Shown here: positions 14,695-22,270 of the stretch, one piece after another
How positions within the stretch are numbered: position 1 is the stretch's first letter
How the letters are laid out: each line of letters begins with the position of its first letter
Source of the DNA: Lysobacteraceae bacterium PS02340
GTDB taxonomy: Bacteria; Pseudomonadota; Gammaproteobacteria; Xanthomonadales; Xanthomonadaceae
Direction of reading: 5' to 3'
Assembly: GCA_029959605.1 (NCBI GenBank)
Contig: JASCOC010000009.1
Location: 62,001 to 126,000 of the forward strand
Length of the DNA stretch: 64,000 bases
The notes under the pieces: generated by a model
The model's input: the letters and a program-made list of their open reading frames with translations, nothing else
What the model was told of the DNA's origin: nothing
Database searches by the model: none
Made by a program: the position numbers and the translations under genes

Positions 14695-14790
14695 TCAGCG
14701 CTTCGGGCCCCGCCACGCGCGCACCGCCGCGTAGAGGATGCCCAGGCTCACGCCCAAGCCGATCCATTGCAGCAGCGTCAGTTCGCTCAT
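14695..14790 (-). CDS. 31-residue single-helix membrane protein, translationally coupled to the thioesterase gene
   Basis: ATG at 14790 overlaps the thioesterase stop in an ATGA arrangement, the usual sign of translational coupling, which supports it as real despite its size. The product is one membrane helix ([18 protein letters not shown]) framed by MSELT and a basic tail (RAWRGPKR), so the N-terminus should face outward and the C-terminus the cytoplasm by the positive-inside rule. I do not recognise a family. It ends the nrd-flavodoxin-thioredoxin-thioesterase gene train. Confidence 0.6.
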
Positions 14791-15200
14791 GCCGCGCCGT
14801 CTGCTTTCGTGGGCAACTGCGCGACCTGCGCCGGGCGTCCGCGCGAATCGAGCGCGATCATCACGAAGCGGCCGCGCGTGCACAGTTCGCGATCGCCGCT
14901 GAGCAGGTCTTCGGCGATCAGCTCCACTTCCACCTGCATCGACGTGCGGCCCACTTCGACCACGCGCGCGATCGTCTCGACCAGTTGGCCCTGCTTGATC
15001 GGCAGCTTGAAATCGACCTGCTCCGAGCGCGCGGTCACCACCGTGCGGCGCGAGTAGCGCGAGGCGGCGATGAAGGCGGCCTTGTCCATCCACGCCAGCG
15101 CGGTGCCGCCGAACAGCGTGCCCAGATGGTTGGTGTGATCGGGGAACACGATCTCCAGCATGCGGGCTTCGGTCTTGGGCGTGTCGGCCAGCGGCGCCAT
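14787..15200 (-). CDS. Acyl-CoA thioesterase, hotdog fold (YciA/BFIT type)
   Basis: A 137-residue cytoplasmic thioesterase. The opening MLEIVFPDHTNHLGTLFGGTALAWMDKAAFIAA is the hotdog catalytic region, with N-H-x-G and G-G-x-x-L-x-W-M-D. The later VDFKLPIKQGQLVETIARVVEVGRTSMQVEVEL is the second signature. It hydrolyses acyl-CoA to free acid and CoA; chain preference is not visible. The ATG overlaps the thioredoxin-like stop by one base (TGATG on the minus strand), so it is co-translated with the redox genes. Confidence 0.93.
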   Translation of the reverse strand: MAPLADTPKTEARMLEIVFPDHTNHLGTLFGGTALAWMDKAAFIAASRYSRRTVVTARSEQVDFKLPIKQGQLVETIARVVEVGRTSMQVEVELIAEDLLSGDRELCTRGRFVMIALDSRGRPAQVAQLPTKADGAA

Positions 15201-15544
15201 CAAGACGCGTCCGCCGTGGCGAGATGCAGACCCACGGCCTGCGCAATCTGCCCGGGTGCCTGGAAGCCCGGCAGGCGCGCCGCCTCGGCGCCGTCCTTGA
15301 ACAGCGCCAGCGTCGGCGTCTGGCGCAGGCCGAGATCGCGGAAGAAGTCTTCGCCGATCACTTCCATCTTCACCTTCAGCAGCGCGACGCCGGCGGCGTC
15401 CTCGCTCGCGGCGAACTTCGCCAGCGACATGTCGAGCATCTTGCAGCCCGGACAATCGTCCTTGTAGTAATCGACGAGCAGGCGCGGATGCGCGGCAAGG
15501 GCGGCGGCGTAGTCGTCAGGCGTGGTGGCGTGGAGCGTCTGCAT
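15200..15544 (-). CDS. Thioredoxin-family protein
   Basis: A 114-residue thioredoxin-fold protein with redox motif CPGC at residues 31-34 in YYKDDCPGCKMLDMS, followed by a cis-Pro loop (LRQTPTLALFKDG) and a terminal helix (GQIAQAVG). CPGC differs from the usual CGPC and suggests a more reducing specialised partner. It overlaps the flavodoxin end by 29 bases and the thioesterase start by one, inside the ribonucleotide reductase block, so a role in re-reducing NrdA or a related factor is plausible but inferred. Confidence 0.9.
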   Translation of the reverse strand: MQTLHATTPDDYAAALAAHPRLLVDYYKDDCPGCKMLDMSLAKFAASEDAAGVALLKVKMEVIGEDFFRDLGLRQTPTLALFKDGAEAARLPGFQAPGQIAQAVGLHLATADAS

Positions 15545-16010
15545 GGGGGATGTTCTCGAACGGTGTTTCAGTGATGGCCAGAATAGTGTCGGTCCAGCGT
15601 TGGATCTTGGTGGCGTCGTGTTCGCCGTGGGGCATCTGTTCGATCTCAAGCCGCGGGTACGTCGTGCCGAAGAACGCGGCCATGCGCCGGGCAGCACCGC
15701 AGTAGTGTTCCTCGCCCCACTGCGTCTCGCCGGTGCCGAACACCGCGACATGTTCCGGCTTGCCGACCGCGGTGACGAGGTCCTCGATGAAACGCTTCAT
15801 CTCCGGCGGCGTGCGCCCGGCGTTGATGCTCCAGCTGCCGAGCACGTAGAGATCATGCTCGGCGCTGTCGGGGCAGACCTTGGCCAGCGTCTGGATGTCG
15901 GCATCGATCCAGGTGACGACATGGCCCAGTGCCTCGCACCGCGCACAGATCGCACGCGCGACATCGCGGGTGTTGCCGCTGAGCGATGTGTGGGCGAGGA
16001 GGATGCGCAA
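15516..16010 (-). CDS. Flavodoxin
   Basis: A 164-residue FMN-binding electron carrier. LLAHTSLSGNT near the N-terminus is the phosphate-binding loop, VLGSWSINAGRTPPEMK and VFGTGETQWGEEHYCGAARRM are the isoalloxazine loops. No ATG or GTG start is available: the best choice is TTG at 16010, giving MRILLAHTSLSGNT; TTG at 16022 is an alternative, and neither has a good ribosome binding site. The AT-richer inserted gene ends 84 bases upstream, so the original start may have been lost. Position behind nrdAB suggests it feeds electrons to ribonucleotide reductase (radical regeneration), by inference. Confidence 0.88.
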   Translation of the reverse strand: MRILLAHTSLSGNTRDVARAICARCEALGHVVTWIDADIQTLAKVCPDSAEHDLYVLGSWSINAGRTPPEMKRFIEDLVTAVGKPEHVAVFGTGETQWGEEHYCGAARRMAAFFGTTYPRLEIEQMPHGEHDATKIQRWTDTILAITETPFENIPHADAPRHHA

Positions 16011-16093
16011 GGTACAACTCAATTGTCGGCTGCAAGAGGAAGCTGCTTGGTACAGAGAGGAGAATATTTAGCGAGCGGTTGCTCAAATCAAAC

Positions 16094-16939
16094 TTAGAAA
16101 TCTGGGGTGGTCTTCTGCATCTTTTGACCATCCGTGCGCTTGTTCCATGATTCAAGGACGAACAAGCAGAGCGTATGTGCGGAATGGATAGCGAGGTGAG
16201 CGTGCCGCGGCTCAAGCTTGTATGCCGGCTTCCCAGCTCCGTGCGCAGAACTTGCGTGTGTTCTGAGCGCGCCTATACCTTTTACTACCGCGATTAGACC
16301 ACTCAGGATCTGCTGCAGATCCTGATCTTCGATTTTGCTCGGATCGATTCCAAGATGCTTGCGGACAACATTCCAGACAGATTGCAAATCCTGCTTTGCG
16401 GGCATATCGAGTCCGTCGTCCTCGATGATGATTTTGCACGTGGACTCAAGGATGTTGCTTGCAGCTGACACGGCTTCTCTAGGAGACGATGTTGCGTTGT
16501 GAACAGCGCGATCGAACTCAATATTTATCGACTCGAGATCTCGATCGCGGATGAACTCTGCAAGTGCCCGCGTGGGGGCAGCCAATGCGGGGACAACTCT
16601 TCCGCCCTTCACGTACTGGAGGTTGCACTCCGTAAGCGTGCGAATGAGCTTTTCGCGCCCCGGAATCAAGCCGGCCTGACAGTCGTTGTGAGGGTCCACA
16701 ATCGATTCCAGCCAGCTCTCTACGATGCGCCCAAGAACTCGGAGCGGATCTACGGAAGTTTCGAGATTTGTGCGGCGCAGCCAAGCAAGCGCTTTTACGT
16801 GCTTGCTTCCGTCAGGCGGCTCCCCAGGTGCACCCGCATATATAAACAGACTGTCGAGAGACGCATGAGTCTCTCGCTCTGCCGCTAGGTCGGCGGTCAC
16901 CGCGAGGACAGCTGCAGGGATGTCCGTGCGCATGGTCAT
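16094..16939 (-). CDS. Abortive-infection-like protein with Abi_C-type C-terminal domain
   Basis: A 281-residue soluble protein. The C-terminal half has the Abi_C (PF14355-type) pattern: a helix with SAASNILESTCKIIIEDDGLDMP, then KQDLQSVWNVVRKHLGID, ILSGLIAVVKGIGALRTHASSAHG, and KLEPRHAHLAIHSAHTLCLFVLESW. The R-T-H-x-S-x-A-H-G and R-H-A-x-L-A segments are highly conserved in that family, which is linked to phage defence. The N-terminal half is less distinctive. Base composition is much lower in G+C than its neighbours: the line 16321-16380 has 29 G/C of 60, against 37 of 60 in nrdB at 17161-17220. ATG at 16939 lies 9 bases after the nrdB stop with no clear ribosome binding site; ATG at 16933 is an alternative. 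Horizontal acquisition into the nrd operon is likely. Its mechanism is unknown. Confidence 0.85.
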   Translation of the reverse strand: MTMRTDIPAAVLAVTADLAAERETHASLDSLFIYAGAPGEPPDGSKHVKALAWLRRTNLETSVDPLRVLGRIVESWLESIVDPHNDCQAGLIPGREKLIRTLTECNLQYVKGGRVVPALAAPTRALAEFIRDRDLESINIEFDRAVHNATSSPREAVSAASNILESTCKIIIEDDGLDMPAKQDLQSVWNVVRKHLGIDPSKIEDQDLQQILSGLIAVVKGIGALRTHASSAHGAGKPAYKLEPRHAHLAIHSAHTLCLFVLESWNKRTDGQKMQKTTPDF

Positions 16940-16948
16940 GACAACCGA

Positions 16949-17998
16949 TTAAAGATCGTCGAACCCGTTATCCGAATTCGTCTTCTTGTACGACGCATTC
17001 CGCATCTCGAAAAAGTCGGTCTTGGTCTCGGTGAAGTTGTCGGCGTAGGCCTTGATCCACGGCATCACGTTGTCGGTGGTGTCGGAATACAGCTTCTCGA
17101 TGCCGAGCATGCCGGCCATCTTGTTGGCGCGGTACTTCACGTAGCGGACCATCTCGTCGACGTCGATGCCGTCGATGCCGTCGAGTACCTCACTCGTCCA
17201 GCGGGTTTCCAGTTCGATCGCGTGTTCGAACGCGTCGTGCACGTACTGGGTGAGCTGGTCGCCCTGCAGGGTCTGGTTCTCGCCGACGATGGCGCGGATC
17301 AGTTCGCTGATGAACTTGCTGTGCGCCAGTTCGTCGCGGTTGATGAAGCTGATGATCTTGCCGGTGCCGGTCATCCGGTTCTGGCGGACCAGGTTGTAGA
17401 AGTACGCGAAGCCGGAATAGAAGTTGATGCCTTCGAGGATCGACGACTGCACCAGCGAGCGGATCAGCGTTTCGGCCGAGCGTTCGCGCATGAAGTCGTT
17501 GTACGAATCCATGATCGGCTGGTTGCGCGCGATGATCGTGGGATGCGTGCGCGCGAGTTCGAACACGCGGTTCTGGTCGGCGAGGCCGGCGATCGAGGCC
17601 AGCACGTAGCTGTAGCTCTCGTTGTGGATCACTTCCTGCTGGCCGATGATCGCGGCGTTCGCATGCGCGGCCGGGTCGGTGATGTACTCGGCGACGTTGT
17701 AGATGTAGCGCGTCTGCGGCGAATCCAGCGTGGCCAGCAGGCCGATGATCGAATCGTAGGCGTTCTTCTCGCGCGCCGAGAGCTCGCCATACTGCTTGGC
17801 GTCGCCCTTCATGTCGACCTCGTCCGGAATCCAGAAGTTGGTCGAGAGTTCCTTGTAGGCGCGATAGAACGACGGATACGGAATGTCGTTCCAGTTGAGG
17901 ATGCCGCTGGTCTGGCCGTTGATGATGCCGGTGGAGCGGTTGGGGTGACGCGGCTCGAGGATCTTGATGCGGTCGAGCGGGGTAGCAGTGGCGGCCAT
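16949..17998 (-). CDS. nrdB: Ribonucleotide reductase class I beta subunit
   Basis: A 349-residue radical-generating subunit. The di-iron ligands fit the family: D62 (FWIPDEVD), E122 and H125 (QQEVIHNESY), then Glu in SSILEGINFYSG and Glu/His in NRDELAHSKF. The radical tyrosine expected seven residues after the first Glu is present (Y129), so this is a tyrosyl-radical enzyme. The C-terminal tail (NSDNGFDDL) that docks on NrdA is intact. ATG at 17998 is preferred over the longer frame to 18049. It lies 178 bases after nrdA on the same strand, with an inverted repeat between. Confidence 0.96.
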   Translation of the reverse strand: MAATATPLDRIKILEPRHPNRSTGIINGQTSGILNWNDIPYPSFYRAYKELSTNFWIPDEVDMKGDAKQYGELSAREKNAYDSIIGLLATLDSPQTRYIYNVAEYITDPAAHANAAIIGQQEVIHNESYSYVLASIAGLADQNRVFELARTHPTIIARNQPIMDSYNDFMRERSAETLIRSLVQSSILEGINFYSGFAYFYNLVRQNRMTGTGKIISFINRDELAHSKFISELIRAIVGENQTLQGDQLTQYVHDAFEHAIELETRWTSEVLDGIDGIDVDEMVRYVKYRANKMAGMLGIEKLYSDTTDNVMPWIKAYADNFTETKTDFFEMRNASYKKTNSDNGFDDL

Positions 17999-18132
17999 GT
18001 GTGTCTTGTCTCGGAATTCGGTGTCGCGCCCCGAATCACGATGCGGCACGACGAATCAATCTGGAGGAAAGCCCCTCTGAGTCAGGGGGGCGCGCCAAGG
18101 GCGCGGGGGTCTGGGTGTTGGTAATGCAGGGT

Positions 18133-18157
18133 CCACGGTTCGCAACGCGAACCGTGG
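18133..18157. repeat. Perfect 11-bp inverted repeat between nrdA and nrdB
   Basis: Arms ccacggttcgc (18133-18143) and gcgaaccgtgg (18147-18157) pair perfectly around a 3-base loop. No T tract follows on either strand, so it is not a classic terminator. It could be an mRNA stability or processing hairpin setting the NrdA:NrdB ratio, or a protein site. Confidence 0.75.
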
Positions 18158-18176
18158 AAGCGAAGCGCGAATGCGC

Positions 18177-20681
18177 TTAGCTACTGCACCACTCGCACTC
18201 GGCGATATCGATGTCGTTCGAACGCACGTAGTACGTGGTCTTCATGCCGAGATTCCACGCGGTCATGTGCAGGTCGAGCAGGGTGCGGGCGGGGATGGTG
18301 CTGGGCACGTAGAAGTTGAAGCTGATCGCCTGGTCGACGTGGCGCTGGCGACGCGCGTTCTGGCGCACCGATGCGAACTGGTCGACCTTGTAGGCGCCCT
18401 TCTCGTAGTAGGGCCAGGTTTCGAGCGACAGGCCGGGGGCTGCGACCGGACGACGGTAGTCCTTCTTCTCTTCGTAATAGAACGCGGAGTAGATCGGATC
18501 GATCGACGCGGTGGAGCCGGCGATCTGCGCGGTGGACATGTTCGGGGCGACCGCCATCAGCCAGCCGTTGCGCATGCCGTTGACGCCGACCTGCGCAGCC
18601 AGATCCATCCACTCGGGCGAGTTGTAGCTGCGGTCGCTGAAGTAGGCGCCGGTGTGCCAGTCGCTGCCGGCGAACACCGGGTAGGCGCCCTTTTCCTTCG
18701 CGAGTTCCATGCTGGCCTGCACGGTCAGGAAGTTGATGCGCTCGTACAGCGAATCACTGAAGTCCTCGGCCTGCGCGTCGTTCCACTGGATGCCCTTCTG
18801 CGCCAGCAGGTGATGCCAGCCGAAGGTGCCCAGACCGATCGCGCGGTACTTCTGGTTGGTGATCGTGGCCTGCGGCACGGGCAGCTGGTTGAGATCGATC
18901 ACGTTGTCGAGCATGCGCACCTGGATCGGGATCAGACGCTCGAGCACGTCGGTGATCAGATCGCTCTGGCCGGCCTGCGGCATGACCGCGCGGCCCAGGT
19001 TCACCGACGACAGGTTGCAGACGACGAAGTCGCCGGCCTGCTTGGTGGTGACGATCTGATTGCCGGAGATGATCTCCTGCATCATCTTCGTCGGGCTCAT
19101 GTTCTGCAGGATCTCGGTGCAGAGATTCGACGAGTACACGCGGCCGACGTGCTTGTTCGGGTTCTTCCGGTTCACTTCGTCGCGGTAGAACATGAAGGGG
19201 TTGCCGGTCTCGAGCTGGCTCACCATCACGCGCTTGAAGATGTCGATCGCCTTGACGGTCTTGCGCGAGATGCGCTCGTCGGCCACGACTTCCTCGTACT
19301 TGCGGCGGAAGCTGCCGTTCGGGTCACCCTTCTTCTCGTCGAAGAAATCCTGCAGGTGCCAGCCCTTGATCTTGTGGACCTCGTGCGGGTCGAACAGGTA
19401 CCAGTCGCCGCGACGCTCGACGGCTTCCATGAAGATGTCGGGGATGCAGATCGAGGTGAACACGTCGTGCGCGCGCAGGCGCTGGTCGCCGTTGTTGAGG
19501 CGCAGGTCGAGGAAGTTCTCGATGTCGCGGTGCCAGATGTCGAGGTAGACCGCGACCGCGCCCTTGCGCTGGCCCAGCTGGTCCACCGACACGGCGGTGT
19601 TGTTGAGCTGCTTGATCCACGGCACCACGCCGCCGGAAGAATTCGGCACGCCGCGGATCGCCGAACCGCTGGAACGCACGTAGCCCATGTACGCGCCCAC
19701 GCCGCCGCCGCCCTTGGAGACGCGGGCGATGTCGGTGTTGGAGTCGTAGATGCCCTGCAGCGAATCGTCGACGGTGTCGATGAAGCACGACGACAGCTGG
19801 CCGCCGACCTTGCCGGCGTTCTGCAGCGTCGGCGTCGCGACGGTCATGTACAGGTTCGACAGTGCCCAGTAGGCCTCGCCGACGAGCTGCATGCGGCGCT
19901 CGCGGCCGCCCTTGGTCTCGTTCTGCATCAGGTACAGGGCGATGGTCAGCCAGCGCTCCTGCGGCAGCTCGAACACGGCGCGCGAGGTGTCGGTGGCGAG
20001 ATAGCGCGTGGCCAGCAGGTACAGGCCGTTGTAGGCGAACAGCTTGTCGCGCTCGGGCTCGATCATGCGGCCGGCTTCCTGCAGCTCTTCCTTGGAATAG
20101 GCGCGCAGGATGTCGTTCGAGTAGATGTTGCGATCGGCCAGCGATTCCTGCAGGCCGACGTAGGAGCCGTACTTCTGCTCGGCGTCGTAGAAGCGGTTGC
20201 GGCTGGCGCGCTTGTACAGGCGGTGCAGGTACAGGCGGGCGGCGAAGAATTCCCACTCCGGCGCGGTGACATCGACGCGGGCTTCGGCCTCGCGGATCAG
20301 ATGGTCGACCAGGTCGTCGGCGTTGACCGCGTCCTTGCGCTCGACGAAGCCGAACACGCTGCGCTTGTAGTCGACGATGTCGAGCTGCGGGAACTCGGCG
20401 TGCGTACGGTCGATGCTGCGCTCCAGGCGCGCACGGTCGTACGGAATGCGGCGGTTGCCGGCTTCCTTGGTGATCCAGTTGGAGACGCCGGCCTCGGCGT
20501 CGAAGACTTCTGCAATTGCGGTGTTCATGGCGGCACTCGGGGGTGGCGGCACCACGTCGTCGGGTTCGACGGCGGGCGGCGCAACGGAAATGGGGGATGT
20601 GGCAGGTGCGGTAACGGTGTCGGCTGTGGCGTCTGCGGCGGCGGCCGGGGTCTCGGTCGCGACGGTCTCGTGGCTGGTCAT
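18177..20681 (-). CDS. nrdA: Ribonucleotide reductase class I alpha subunit
   Basis: An 834-residue catalytic subunit that reduces ribonucleoside diphosphates. Active-site pieces are visible: the first redox Cys in GGQLSSCFIDT, the thiyl-radical loop NLCTEI (Asn-Cys-Glu), the partner Cys in VVCNLSSVNLG, and the C-terminal shuttle pair CEWCSS. Residues ~65-160 (VSNWITKEAGNRRIPYDRARLERSI...) resemble an ATP-cone but I cannot say whether it is functional. The first ~50 residues are a low-complexity Ala/Pro-rich extension. ATG at 20681 has AGAGGA upstream; an ATG at 20528 would drop the extension but has no ribosome binding site. A cobalamin riboswitch precedes it. Confidence 0.96.
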   Translation of the reverse strand: MTSHETVATETPAAAADATADTVTAPATSPISVAPPAVEPDDVVPPPPSAAMNTAIAEVFDAEAGVSNWITKEAGNRRIPYDRARLERSIDRTHAEFPQLDIVDYKRSVFGFVERKDAVNADDLVDHLIREAEARVDVTAPEWEFFAARLYLHRLYKRASRNRFYDAEQKYGSYVGLQESLADRNIYSNDILRAYSKEELQEAGRMIEPERDKLFAYNGLYLLATRYLATDTSRAVFELPQERWLTIALYLMQNETKGGRERRMQLVGEAYWALSNLYMTVATPTLQNAGKVGGQLSSCFIDTVDDSLQGIYDSNTDIARVSKGGGGVGAYMGYVRSSGSAIRGVPNSSGGVVPWIKQLNNTAVSVDQLGQRKGAVAVYLDIWHRDIENFLDLRLNNGDQRLRAHDVFTSICIPDIFMEAVERRGDWYLFDPHEVHKIKGWHLQDFFDEKKGDPNGSFRRKYEEVVADERISRKTVKAIDIFKRVMVSQLETGNPFMFYRDEVNRKNPNKHVGRVYSSNLCTEILQNMSPTKMMQEIISGNQIVTTKQAGDFVVCNLSSVNLGRAVMPQAGQSDLITDVLERLIPIQVRMLDNVIDLNQLPVPQATITNQKYRAIGLGTFGWHHLLAQKGIQWNDAQAEDFSDSLYERINFLTVQASMELAKEKGAYPVFAGSDWHTGAYFSDRSYNSPEWMDLAAQVGVNGMRNGWLMAVAPNMSTAQIAGSTASIDPIYSAFYYEEKKDYRRPVAAPGLSLETWPYYEKGAYKVDQFASVRQNARRQRHVDQAISFNFYVPSTIPARTLLDLHMTAWNLGMKTTYYVRSNDIDIAECEWCSS

Positions 20682-20883
20682 GCGTCCTCTCTGTGTCCAG
20701 TGCATTCGCGCACACGACCGGCCCACCCACGTCGGGTCCGGCGGCCTTGGAGTGTTCCGAGGGTGATCGGGCGGCGTCGCAGGGATCGCGATCGGGCGCA
20801 CAGCGCCATCGCCCCCACTCCGCAAACCCGCCCCCCACGGGACGTCCGCAGCCGGCACCGCGCGTTGTGCTGTCCACGCGGCT
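20682..20883 (-). other. nrdA leader between riboswitch and start codon
   Basis: About 200 bases with no gene. It should contain the expression platform of the riboswitch. I do not see a U-tract terminator, so control may act at the ribosome binding site (GAGAGGA just before the ATG) or by Rho. Confidence 0.5.
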
Positions 20884-21035
20884 GTCGGCAGGTCTTCGGA
20901 CTCATGGGCACGAAGGCAGCGCCTTCTCCTCCCCCGCCGCTTCCCGGATCGCTCCAGTGCTGTTGGCGGGTTCGTTCCCAATTACCGCTGCGGGGCAGTG
21001 CCGGAGTGGCGCGAGGCGTCACCGGCTTCCCGTTT
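20884..21035 (-). promoter_or_regulatory. Cobalamin (B12) riboswitch in the nrdA leader
   Basis: Read on the minus strand, the conserved pieces occur in order: GGGAAGCCGGTG, CACTGCCCCGC, GGTAATTGGGAA, GCACTGGAGCGA, CCGGGAAG, GAAGGCGCTGCC, ATGAGTCC and the B12 box GAGTCCGAAGACCTGCC (complement at 20884-20903). The order and spacing are those of the cobalamin riboswitch (RF00174). It sits 33 bases after a likely transcription start and about 200 before nrdA. Adenosyl- or other cobalamin binding should repress the class I reductase. Confidence 0.93.
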
Positions 21036-21074
21036 TAATCCACAGCCCTTGGGGGGCGCGGAACCGACGGACCC

Positions 21075-21103
21075 AAGATAGTGGGGTGTGTCGGCAGCGT
21101 CAA
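21075..21103 (-). promoter_or_regulatory. Sigma-70 promoter of the nrdA operon
   Basis: On the minus strand TTGACG (-35, complement at 21098-21103) and TATCTT (-10, 21075-21080) are separated by 17 bases. This is a 5/6 and a 4/6 match at ideal spacing, directly upstream of the riboswitch. Confidence 0.7.
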
Positions 21104-21231
21104 CGCTAAATGTAGTGAAGATGCGGCAGGCCGCGTCCTGATGGGAATCGTGGTTCGTCAAGCCCTTCGTGCGGGCCGCCGGATGCAGATCGGGGTGCGG
21201 AGGGCAAGCCCTTCGGGGTGTTTTTCTTGAT

Positions 21232-21352
21232 CCTTCCCCCTTCGGGGGAAGGTGCCCGAAGGGCGGCTGAGGGCGCTCCTGAACGTCCCTGTGGAGCCCC
21301 GGCCCTCACCCGACGCGCTTCGCGTGTCGACCTCTCCCAAAGGGAGAAGTGC
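21232..21352. repeat. Dispersed intergenic repeat with hairpins
   Basis: Starts with ccttccccc-ttc-gggggaagg (21232-21252, 9-bp perfect stem), followed by gtgcccgaagggcgg...gagggcgc and ending ctctcccaaagggagaag. This wording (ccttccccc, tgcccgaagggcgg, gccctcac, cctctccc) is typical of xanthomonad intergenic repeats. The rest of 21036-21475 holds the nrdA promoter on the minus strand and no recognisable gene. Confidence 0.7.
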
Positions 21353-21475
21353 TCACGGCCTGCCTGCCCGGGCGCCACCTCGTCAAAACCCGAACCCCGC
21401 CACACACCCTGCACGATTTCCGGCGCACGCTGCGGCGAGCGCGGCCAGCCCGGCCGGCACATCCGGAGGTGCCCC

Positions 21476-22270
21476 ATGTCCGTCATCCGCCGCAGCGCGC
21501 TGGCCGCTGCCACGCTGTCGCTGTCCGCCCTGCTCGCGCCGTCGCTAGTGGCCGCGCAGGACCCCGCCCCCGGGCTGGGCGATCTGCAGGGTCTCGCCGA
21601 CCGCACCGCGTCGCGCACGCTGGGCGCGCGCGGCTACGTCCGCCAGTCGGGGTCCGGCGACTACGGCAGTTGGTGGAACGCGCGCGACCGGCGCTGCGTG
21701 ATGGTGCGCAGCGACGGCGGGCGCGTCGTCTCGGTGGTCACCACCCCGGCGCCCGATTGCGGACAGCAGGCCGGCGACGCGCCGCGCGAGGGCATGAGCG
21801 ACGGCACCAAGGCGGCCGTGGCCGCGGCGGCGATCCTCGGCATCGCCGCGCTCGCGCACCGCGCGCATCACCACGACGACGGCGACCACGACGACGATCC
21901 GCGCCGCGAGGCCGATTACGAGCGCGGCTACCGCGATGCCCTGCACGGTTACCGGGCCGATTCCGACCGCGGCGCCTACAGCGACGGCTACGGCGCCGGC
22001 ATGCGTGAGCGTTCGGCGCAGGTGCCGTGGCAGTCGGGCAATACGGGTAACTCGGGCGGCAGCCGGCTCGACGATCTGGTCGGCGCGCGTGCGGCCGGTG
22101 CAGACACCGAGCTGCGCGCGCGCGGCTTCGTCGATCGCGACGCCCAGCAGCGCGATGGCCGCTCCGTCGTGACCTGGTGGAACGCGCGCTCGCGCGAGTG
22201 CGTGCACGTGGCGACCGGCAACGGCCGCATCGAATCGATCCGCGGCGTCGACGCGTCCAACTGCCGCTGA
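21476..22270 (+). CDS. Secreted protein with duplicated ~50-residue module
   Basis: A 264-residue protein with a signal peptide (ALAAATLSLSALLAPSLVAAQ). It carries two copies of one module: residues ~40-95 (ASRTLGARGYVRQSG...WWNARDRRCVMV...GRVVSV....DC) and ~205-264 (LRARGFVDRDAQ...TWWNARSRECVHV..GNGRIESI...NC). Each copy has W-W-N-A-R, then R-x-C, and a final Cys, suggesting one disulphide per module. Between them are a hydrophobic Ala helix (KAAVAAAAILGIAALAHRAHHH), a His/Asp-rich stretch (HHHDDGDHDDD, possible metal binding) and a Gly/Tyr-rich YERGYRDAL..Y region. GGAGG six bases before ATG 21476 fixes the start. No function is known to me. Confidence 0.8.
   Translation: MSVIRRSALAAATLSLSALLAPSLVAAQDPAPGLGDLQGLADRTASRTLGARGYVRQSGSGDYGSWWNARDRRCVMVRSDGGRVVSVVTTPAPDCGQQAGDAPREGMSDGTKAAVAAAAILGIAALAHRAHHHDDGDHDDDPRREADYERGYRDALHGYRADSDRGAYSDGYGAGMRERSAQVPWQSGNTGNSGGSRLDDLVGARAAGADTELRARGFVDRDAQQRDGRSVVTWWNARSRECVHVATGNGRIESIRGVDASNCR

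What the first reader, a model, noticed from the sequence alone, without database searches (positions are those of the whole stretch)
16010..16948. Abortive-infection-like (Abi_C) gene inserted into the ribonucleotide reductase operon
A 281-residue Abi_C-type gene lies 9 bases behind nrdB and ahead of flavodoxin, on the same strand, with visibly lower G+C than both sides. As an nrdB passenger it would be expressed whenever the class I reductase is made and silenced by B12. Coupling a phage-defence protein to dNTP supply is biologically sensible because phages need dNTPs, and some defence systems act by depleting them. The link is seen in position and composition; the functional coupling is inference.
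Basis: partly seen in the sequence, partly recalled or inferred. Interest (0 to 1): 0.8.

Follow-up and report, generated by a model that had tools for sequence, protein, structure and literature searches.

The report
Swap slot for defence-like genes
Between two genes of an operon that makes DNA building blocks, related bacteria appear to exchange one foreign gene for another, often one that resembles anti-virus defence; the gene found here is a probable RNA-cutting abortive-infection protein.

Summary
In detail: a 281-aa Abi_C gene (PF14355, E 7.5e-21) lies 9 bp behind nrdB and before flavodoxin, same strand, in the lowest-GC stretch of the window; a cobalamin riboswitch precedes nrdA. The larger finding is an exchange slot. 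Of 96 nrdB-flavodoxin junctions read, 23 carry cargo: 15 of 38 in the window's genus, 8 of 17 in a second (probably Xanthomonas), 0 of 41 elsewhere. The 15 cargo types are co-directional; 9 of 15 match defence or candidate-defence profiles against 1 of 10 control genes. In the second genus 7 of 8 cargo genomes have a flavodoxin of the first genus's type; the foreign tract runs from the nrdB end into thioredoxin, as double homologous recombination would leave it. Two cargo families shared by both genera have close copies only here in 297 genomes. B12 control is not what makes the slot: riboswitch in 9 of 9 loci of the first genus, 0 of 11 of the second. Coupling to dNTP supply is untested. Abi_C is probably a HEPN RNase effector.

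The parts
16094..16939 (-). Abi_C / AbiJ-like gene, 281 aa (cargo)
16241..16264 (-). RTHASSAH = R-x6-H motif, residues 226-233, candidate HEPN active site
   Evidence: H233 in 7 of 7 rows, R226 in 6 of 7; motif definition from passages of PMC3710099
16940..16948 (-). 9-bp spacer between nrdB stop and cargo start; left border of the slot
16011..16093 (-). 83-bp spacer between cargo stop and flavodoxin TTG start; right border of the slot
16949..18049 (-). nrdB, class Ia reductase small subunit (true start may lie further in); proposed left recombination arm
18177..20681 (-). nrdA, large subunit (start taken at MTSHETV, 834 aa)
20870..21083 (-). cobalamin riboswitch RF00174
21075..21103 (-). sigma-70-like promoter match before the riboswitch (consensus only)
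15516..16010 (-). flavodoxin (164 aa from the TTG start); its homologue is of g1 type in 7 of 8 cargo genomes of genus g18
15200..15544 (-). thioredoxin-like gene (114 aa, named by eye from its CPGC motif); right end of the exchanged tract lies inside its homologue in g18
14787..15200 (-). 4HBT thioesterase, next gene (start taken at MAPLADTPK), outside the exchanged tract

Best explanation
The interval between nrdB and flavodoxin is a slot in the class Ia ribonucleotide reductase operon that is repeatedly filled and refilled with one foreign gene or a small gene pair. [quoted passage not shown] The cargo points the same way as the operon, so it is expressed as a passenger of nrdAB. Most cargo types resemble anti-phage genes. 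The occupant here, an Abi_C protein, most likely works as a HEPN-type RNase: a C-terminal helical HEPN domain with an R-x6-H active site behind an N-terminal region that may sense infection, cutting RNA and halting the infected cell. Shown here: presence, variability, co-direction, exchanged tract, Abi_C membership. Inferred: expression with nrdB, recombination as the route, RNase activity, phage defence.
For: 96 junctions compared: 15 of 38 in genus g1, 8 of 17 in g18, 0 of 41 in seven other genera carry cargo; 15 types, all on the nrd strand (one-sided p 3e-5 if types are independent), starting at position 10-83 after the nrdB stop. In 7 g18 cargo genomes the DNA identity to 3 g18 genomes without cargo is nrdA 95%, nrdB 95-96%, flavodoxin 66%, thioredoxin 81%, and to 8 g1 cargo genomes nrdA 84%, nrdB 88%, flavodoxin 88%, thioredoxin 80%; mean breakpoints lie between the nrdB end and cargo, and at about nt 120-180 of thioredoxin (6 of the 7). 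Flavodoxin tree: the 7 g18 cargo rows nest with 11 of the 15 g1 cargo rows; one g18 clade rejected, AU p 0.007. Close copies of the IrrE cargo (5 of 5 in 297 genomes, plus G011) and of the M04A cargo (3 of 3 in 297) lie at this site. PADLOC profile at E<=1e-4: 9 of 15 types against 1 of 10 window genes (Fisher p 0.016). A relative of the M04 pair sits inside a type I restriction gene set on a plasmid. Abi_C relatives: 178 plasmid records; one beside the integrase of a P2-like phage. Foldseek HEPN matches 1o3u and 2hsb, probability 0.99.
Against: G373 (g18) carries cargo of the G031 type but keeps the native g18 flavodoxin, and 4 of 15 g1 cargo genomes (G043, G012, G011, G022) have flavodoxins outside the 18-row cargo clade, whose support is only 84, so the flavodoxin does not always travel. 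6 of 15 cargo types have no PADLOC hit at 1e-4, and many hits are to part of a profile or to 'PDC' candidates; the 10 control genes are not accessory genes, so the contrast is weak. No excess similarity was seen in the nrdB 3' end, neither among g1 cargo genomes nor between g1 and g18 cargo genomes, so the left arm is inferred from the tract border. First capture of a new gene is not explained by homology at the flanks. The fold model is weak (mean pLDDT 61.5, under 50 at residues 231-237 where the motif histidine lies) and no Foldseek match reaches E 0.001; the HEPN matches rank 3 and 6 with E 0.26-0.32. The motif's R is missing in 1 of 7 rows.
Confidence: 0.75

Rival explanations
1. The site is simply tolerant of insertions: any gene may land behind nrdB because nothing is broken there, and the defence flavour reflects what mobile DNA usually carries. 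There is no functional link to the reductase. (Compatible with the recombination part of the best explanation, so the two odds do not exclude each other.)
For: 6 of 15 cargo types lack a PADLOC match at E<=1e-4; a dispersed repeat alone fills the site in 3 of 38 g1 genomes; two g18 genomes hold 578 bp without an evident gene.
Against: All 15 types point the same way. The nrdA-nrdB junction of 21 loci is 124-326 bp and holds no ORF of 50 aa or more in 20 of 21, one 57-aa ORF in G045. Close copies of two cargo families are confined to this site in 297 family genomes.
Confidence: 0.45
2. One reading: a phage-defence gene coupled to dNTP supply and to B12, made when the class I reductase is on and silenced by B12.
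For: Cobalamin riboswitch before nrdA in the window and 9 of 9 g1 loci; class II NrdJ elsewhere in the genome; no consensus minus-strand promoter or terminator between nrdB and the gene.
Against: g18 uses the same slot, with shared cargo, without the riboswitch, 0 of 11 loci. The empty g1 genome G018 has the same riboswitch. No Pfam hit above cut-off among the cargo proteins points to dNTP metabolism.
Confidence: 0.2
3. Cargo is placed by a site-specific mobile element (integron-like cassettes, or palindromic repeats seen before flavodoxin in some genomes).
For: One-gene, same-strand, low-GC cassettes recall integron cassettes (recalled); palindromes of the GGGTCAGAGTCG type, seen by eye, lie before flavodoxin in several filled and empty junctions.
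Against: No direct or inverted repeat longer than 9 bp joins the two borders in any of 22 cargo genomes (G373 not included), and the longest words differ from genome to genome; no recombinase among the cargo ORFs searched; the exchanged tract runs past the cargo end through flavodoxin into thioredoxin.
Confidence: 0.07
4. The flavodoxin, not the cargo, is what is selected: an exchanged reductase partner drags the neighbouring gene along.
For: In 7 of 8 cargo-bearing g18 genomes the flavodoxin and part of thioredoxin are of g1 type.
Against: Cargo differs among g18 genomes that share this flavodoxin type (4 types in 7 genomes); G373 has cargo with the native flavodoxin.
Confidence: 0.1

Closest known systems
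[quoted passage not shown] passages seen)
   Same: Fixed flanking genes, cargo turnover, no integrase, recombination at flanks.
   Different: Here the slot is inside the operon of a central enzyme, holds one gene or a small pair, co-directional in all 15 types, and the exchange crosses genera with a mapped tract.
Core defence hotspots of Pseudomonas aeruginosa (PMC10250203; passages seen)
   Same: Defence genes between conserved markers without one mobilising mechanism; the paper also suggests flank homology as a route.
   Different: cDHS1 ranges over 1-224 kb and such sites are occupied in essentially all isolates; here 0.3-1.9 kb, occupied in 23 of 96 junctions.
Abi_C / AbiJ abortive-infection proteins, HEPN superfamily (PMC3710099; passages seen)
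   Same: Abi_C domain above cut-off, AbiJ profile match, R-x6-H motif, C-terminal domain behind a variable N-terminal part.
   Different: N-terminal region unassigned here; lies as a passenger behind nrdB.
Defence-gene hotspots of P2-like prophages (recalled, not looked up)
   Same: A relative (48.8% identity) sits as a single gene beside the integrase of the Peduoviridae phage ESSI2_ev040.
   Different: That is a phage site; ours is a chromosomal operon.

Membership tests
Abi_C (PF14355) | Pfam gathering score | tested here: met
   74.5 bits against 24
HEPN RNase | R-x4-6-H motif | tested here: met
   R226-x6-H233; H in 7 of 7, R in 6 of 7 aligned rows
HEPN RNase | HEPN helical fold | tested here: inconclusive
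   Foldseek matches of highest probability are HEPN proteins 1o3u and 2hsb (TMt 0.58-0.59, prob 0.99, ranks 3 and 6) but E 0.26-0.32 on a model of mean pLDDT 61.5
HEPN RNase | RNase activity | not testable with these tools
   needs biochemistry
Abortive-infection defence | protection against phage | not testable with these tools
   needs phage challenge
Homologous-recombination hotspot | variable cargo between conserved flanks | tested here: met
   15 types in 23 of 96 junctions
Homologous-recombination hotspot | recombination at a flanking gene (phylogenetic incongruence) | tested here: met
   flavodoxin tree, AU p 0.007, mean breakpoints; exception G373
Homologous-recombination hotspot | no integrase in the interval | tested here: met
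   Pfam of the cargo ORFs of all 15 types; other small ORFs of the intervals not searched
Integron cassette array | shared recombination site at cassette ends | tested here: not met
   no border word over 9 bp within any of 22 cargo genomes; attC folds not modelled
Defence island / hotspot | cargo enriched in defence genes | tested here: inconclusive
   9 of 15 types against 1 of 10 control genes, p 0.016; weak control, candidate and partial profiles
B12-controlled passenger | cobalamin riboswitch upstream wherever the slot is used | tested here: not met
   9 of 9 g1, 0 of 11 g18 loci

The most novel reading that the evidence does not exclude
The nrdB-flavodoxin junction is a selected, operon-embedded defence slot: by riding on the mRNA of the aerobic reductase, short defence genes are expressed at once without a promoter of their own, escape silencing of foreign DNA, and are made exactly when dNTP supply, which phages need, is high; recombination at the two reductase genes lets cells of different genera trade them like cassettes, with the flavodoxin carried along.
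Probability: 0.25. Interest if true: 0.85.

Novelty: new variant of a known kind. Interest (0 to 1): 0.6.

Why it matters
Exchange hotspots are usually described as islands between core genes. A slot of one gene inside a reductase operon, with cargo co-directional in all 15 types and the traded tract mapped between two genera, offers a simple system for asking how bacteria trade defence genes without mobile elements, and a place to look for new ones: 6 of 15 cargo types have no PADLOC match at E<=1e-4.

Tried and rejected
Considered and rejected or downgraded: (a) a lone recent insertion: rejected, the site is recurrent. (b) B12 coupling as the reason for the slot: not met in g18. (c) Cassette ends, target duplications: no border repeats over 9 bp in 22 cargo genomes. 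(d) A palindrome or dispersed repeat as the cause: present in some empty and some filled sites; not pursued to a transposase. (e) Phage nrdB as a vehicle: the closest phage NrdB are Listeria phage records at 75-80% protein identity, which I judge too distant for homologous exchange; the 60 records listed of 3369 with a match are of Listeria, Bacillus and Lysinibacillus phages only. (f) IMG/VR scan with the Abi_C protein found no pattern match. (g) IrrE cargo in plasmids: no match. (h) Relatives of Abi_C in 8 of 199 genomes including the window's own: the nearest, G056 (70%), has no orthologous nrdB; G180 (59%, partial) lies beside two recombinase-like ORFs, recognised by eye; the others are 27-48% identical over part of the protein and their places were not examined. 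(i) Pfam hits below cut-off (PDDEXK_9, PBECR2, AAA_16 and others) are leads only. (j) G221's 83-aa ORF and G383's 54-aa ORF were not counted as cargo.

Cargo ORFs were chosen by eye as the first or longest ORF behind nrdB; in G012 longer ORFs on both strands inside a dispersed repeat were passed over. G011, G018 and G373 were kept out of the group means and shown there as rows of their own; G300 was left out.

Literature: search listings only; passages seen in PMC3710099, PMC10250203, PMC11680222, PMC5635113. None of what I saw describes the nrdB-flavodoxin slot; most subscription papers and all preprints lie outside the library.

Full report
OBSERVATION. ORF 16094-16939 (-) encodes 281 aa and starts 9 bp after the nrdB stop codon; the flavodoxin TTG start is at about 16010. 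Pfam gives Abi_C at 74.5 bits (cut-off 24) over residues 188-263, PADLOC gives AbiJ at 9.2e-16. The interval is the least G+C-rich part of the window: 0.546 against 0.686, and all 40 of 6316 sliding windows at or below the ORF's value lie here. A cobalamin riboswitch (103 bits) precedes nrdA, and a class II reductase is present on another contig (577 bits). In 15000-22000 the consensus scan shows no minus-strand terminator and only one minus-strand promoter-like site, before the riboswitch; such scans are weak evidence.

THE SAME JUNCTION IN RELATIVES. The nrdB protein was sought in 52 held genomes of the genus and in a sample of 297 of the family. 38 genus members hold the orthologue (84% identity or more); 71 of the 297 match at E<=1e-100, 13 of them in the genus and 58 outside it. 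The junction was read in all 38 plus these 58, 96 in all: 38 of genus g1, 17 of g18, 41 of seven other genera. In g1, 15 of 38 carry one or two foreign ORFs, 3 hold only about 430-460 bp of dispersed repeat, 20 have -10 to 184 bp. In g18, 7 of 17 carry a gene of 237 aa or more or a gene pair, and an eighth (G373) an intact 89-aa ORF 40% identical (E 2e-23) to the first ORF of G031; three more have 331-578 bp without a convincing gene and six have at most 189 bp. In the other 41 the gap is at most 264 bp and holds no ORF above 36 aa where it is 120 bp or longer. In a class-wide sample only the window's own genome, 1 of 274, had the orthologue, so the slot could not be followed further.

THE CARGO. 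There are 15 types, named by genome: Abi_C (G000); trypsin-like (G043); a 490-aa protein with weak nuclease similarity (G009); a DUF3800 plus 158-aa pair (G021, G392, G300); an ATPase-like protein below the Pfam cut-off (G045); 88 plus 223 aa (G031; the 88-aa part in G373; an 81-aa ORF resembling the 223-aa gene in G011); 326 aa (G047); DUF4238 (G001); Schlafen AlbA_2 (G022); 90 plus 156 aa (G012); IrrE/M78 peptidase (G048, G039, G011, G410, G114, G341); 201 aa (G035); 260 aa (G042); 237 aa (G267); 325 aa (G316). Six types pass a Pfam cut-off. Cargo intervals have G+C 0.46-0.55 in g1 against 0.63-0.69 for the flavodoxin. All 15 types lie on the nrd strand, one-sided p 3e-5 if types are independent, and start at position 10-83 after the nrdB stop. 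As a control junction, nrdA-nrdB is 124-326 bp in 21 loci, with no ORF of 50 aa or more in 20 of 21 and one of 57 aa in G045.

DEFENCE CONTENT. At E<=1e-4, 9 of 15 types match PADLOC profiles: AbiJ 9e-16, LmuA 4e-10 and RT-protease 9e-10, PDC-M36A 1e-16, PDC-M04A and M04B 1.6e-73 and 2.7e-65, PDC-S59 1.7e-28, DUF4238-Pers 1.8e-5, PDC-S19 1.9e-6, PDC-M14A 8.9e-8, capP 2.2e-17 with RmrA. Of 10 window genes used as control, 1 did, an ABC-transporter-like ATPase; Fisher one-sided p 0.016. Caveats: 'PDC' stands for phage defence candidates (recalled; the listing fits), several hits cover part of a profile, and the control genes are not accessory genes. Independent support: a relative of the M04 pair (66% identity for the first protein) lies between genes annotated as S and R subunits of a type I restriction system on a Phyllobacterium plasmid.

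HOW IT MOVES. In g18 cargo genomes nrdA and nrdB are native (95-96% DNA identity to g18 genomes without cargo, 84-88% to g1), but flavodoxin is 66% to the former and 88% to g1 cargo genomes (7 cargo and 3 empty g18 genomes, 8 g1 cargo genomes). Window means place the left border between the last 100 bp of nrdB (96% native against 93%) and the cargo, and the right border at about nt 120-180 of thioredoxin (6 of the 7 cargo genomes). In the flavodoxin tree of 96 rows the 7 g18 cargo rows nest with 11 of 15 g1 cargo rows in a clade of support 84; the other four g1 cargo rows (G043, G012, G011, G022) lie outside it. Holding all 17 g18 rows together is rejected, AU p 0.0073. Against a strict rule, G373 has cargo with a native flavodoxin, and no excess similarity is seen in the nrdB 3' end. 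Cargo DNA is 83-84% identical between the two genera for IrrE (81% for G011) and 82-83% for M04. Close copies of these two occur only at this site: IrrE 5 of 5 (the only other hit 37%) and M04A 3 of 3 (the two others 33-37%), each in 297 genomes; G011, not listed in that sample, is a sixth IrrE copy at the site. No border repeat over 9 bp was found in 22 cargo genomes. This is what double homologous recombination at flanking genes predicts, as Oliveira et al. proposed for hotspots without mobile elements (PMC5635113, passages). How a new gene first enters is not explained; Abi_C relatives on 178 plasmid records (best 61.5%) and beside the integrase of a Peduoviridae phage show that the pool is mobile.

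B12. The riboswitch precedes nrdA in the window and in 9 of 9 g1 loci, one of them empty, but in 0 of 11 g18 loci, 8 of which carry cargo. B12 control is therefore a property of the operon in one genus and not the basis of the slot. That g18 is Xanthomonas is inferred from the sX9 RNA found in 4 of its 11 loci; the window's family is taken as Lysobacteraceae from the title of the one named relative.

THE ABI_C PROTEIN. Its C-terminal domain has R226-x6-H233; the histidine is kept in 7 of 7 and the arginine in 6 of 7 aligned rows. AbiJ is placed in the HEPN superfamily, with spacers of 4 to 6 residues, in PMC3710099 (passages). The fold model is fair only for about residues 131-230 and 241-270, and poor (under 50) at 231-237, where the motif histidine lies; the matches of highest probability (0.99) are HEPN proteins 1o3u and 2hsb, at ranks 3 and 6 with E 0.26-0.32, and nothing reaches E 0.001. 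I take it as a probable HEPN RNase with an unassigned N-terminal part; RNA cleavage and phage defence are inferred from family.

VERDICT. Observation confirmed; interpretation partly supported. The kind (recombination hotspot between core genes) is known; an intra-operon, single-gene, co-directional slot in the reductase operon that trades across genera was not found in the papers searched.

Noticed in passing
window 16949-18049 and L168: This NrdB is about 75-76% identical to NrdB of Listeria phages of the P100 group; in the one read, LP-048, the order nrdA-nrdB-flavodoxin-(orf)-thioredoxin is the same as here. Four short unannotated Listeria phage records reach 79-80%. The orthologue was in 1 of 274 class genomes, the window's own.
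   Followed up: partly
G000:C81:10800-10997, outside the window (L164): A second Abi_C-domain protein in the same genome, over the family cut-off at 45.8 bits.
   Followed up: no
junctions of G046, G020, G038, G043, G022, G012: A dispersed repeat, 207-293 bp aligned in most pairs and 528 bp in one, 84-92% identical between genomes, sits at this site alone or behind cargo.
   Followed up: no
junctions of G047, G031, G009, G035, G022 (filled) and G024, G008 (empty): A palindrome with GGGTCAGAGTCG-type ends, seen by eye and degenerate in some, lies just before flavodoxin.
   Followed up: no
G009 and G011, between thioredoxin and 4HBT (L147, L145): A gap of 1.6-2.1 kb of normal G+C with an opposite-strand ORF of 373-377 aa; the other seven g1 loci in which 4HBT was found have no such gap.
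   Followed up: no
G068 and G401 junctions (L085, L093): 578 bp, 99% identical between the two, with no ORF above 40 aa inside it; begins, by eye, with a terminator-like GC hairpin.
   Followed up: no
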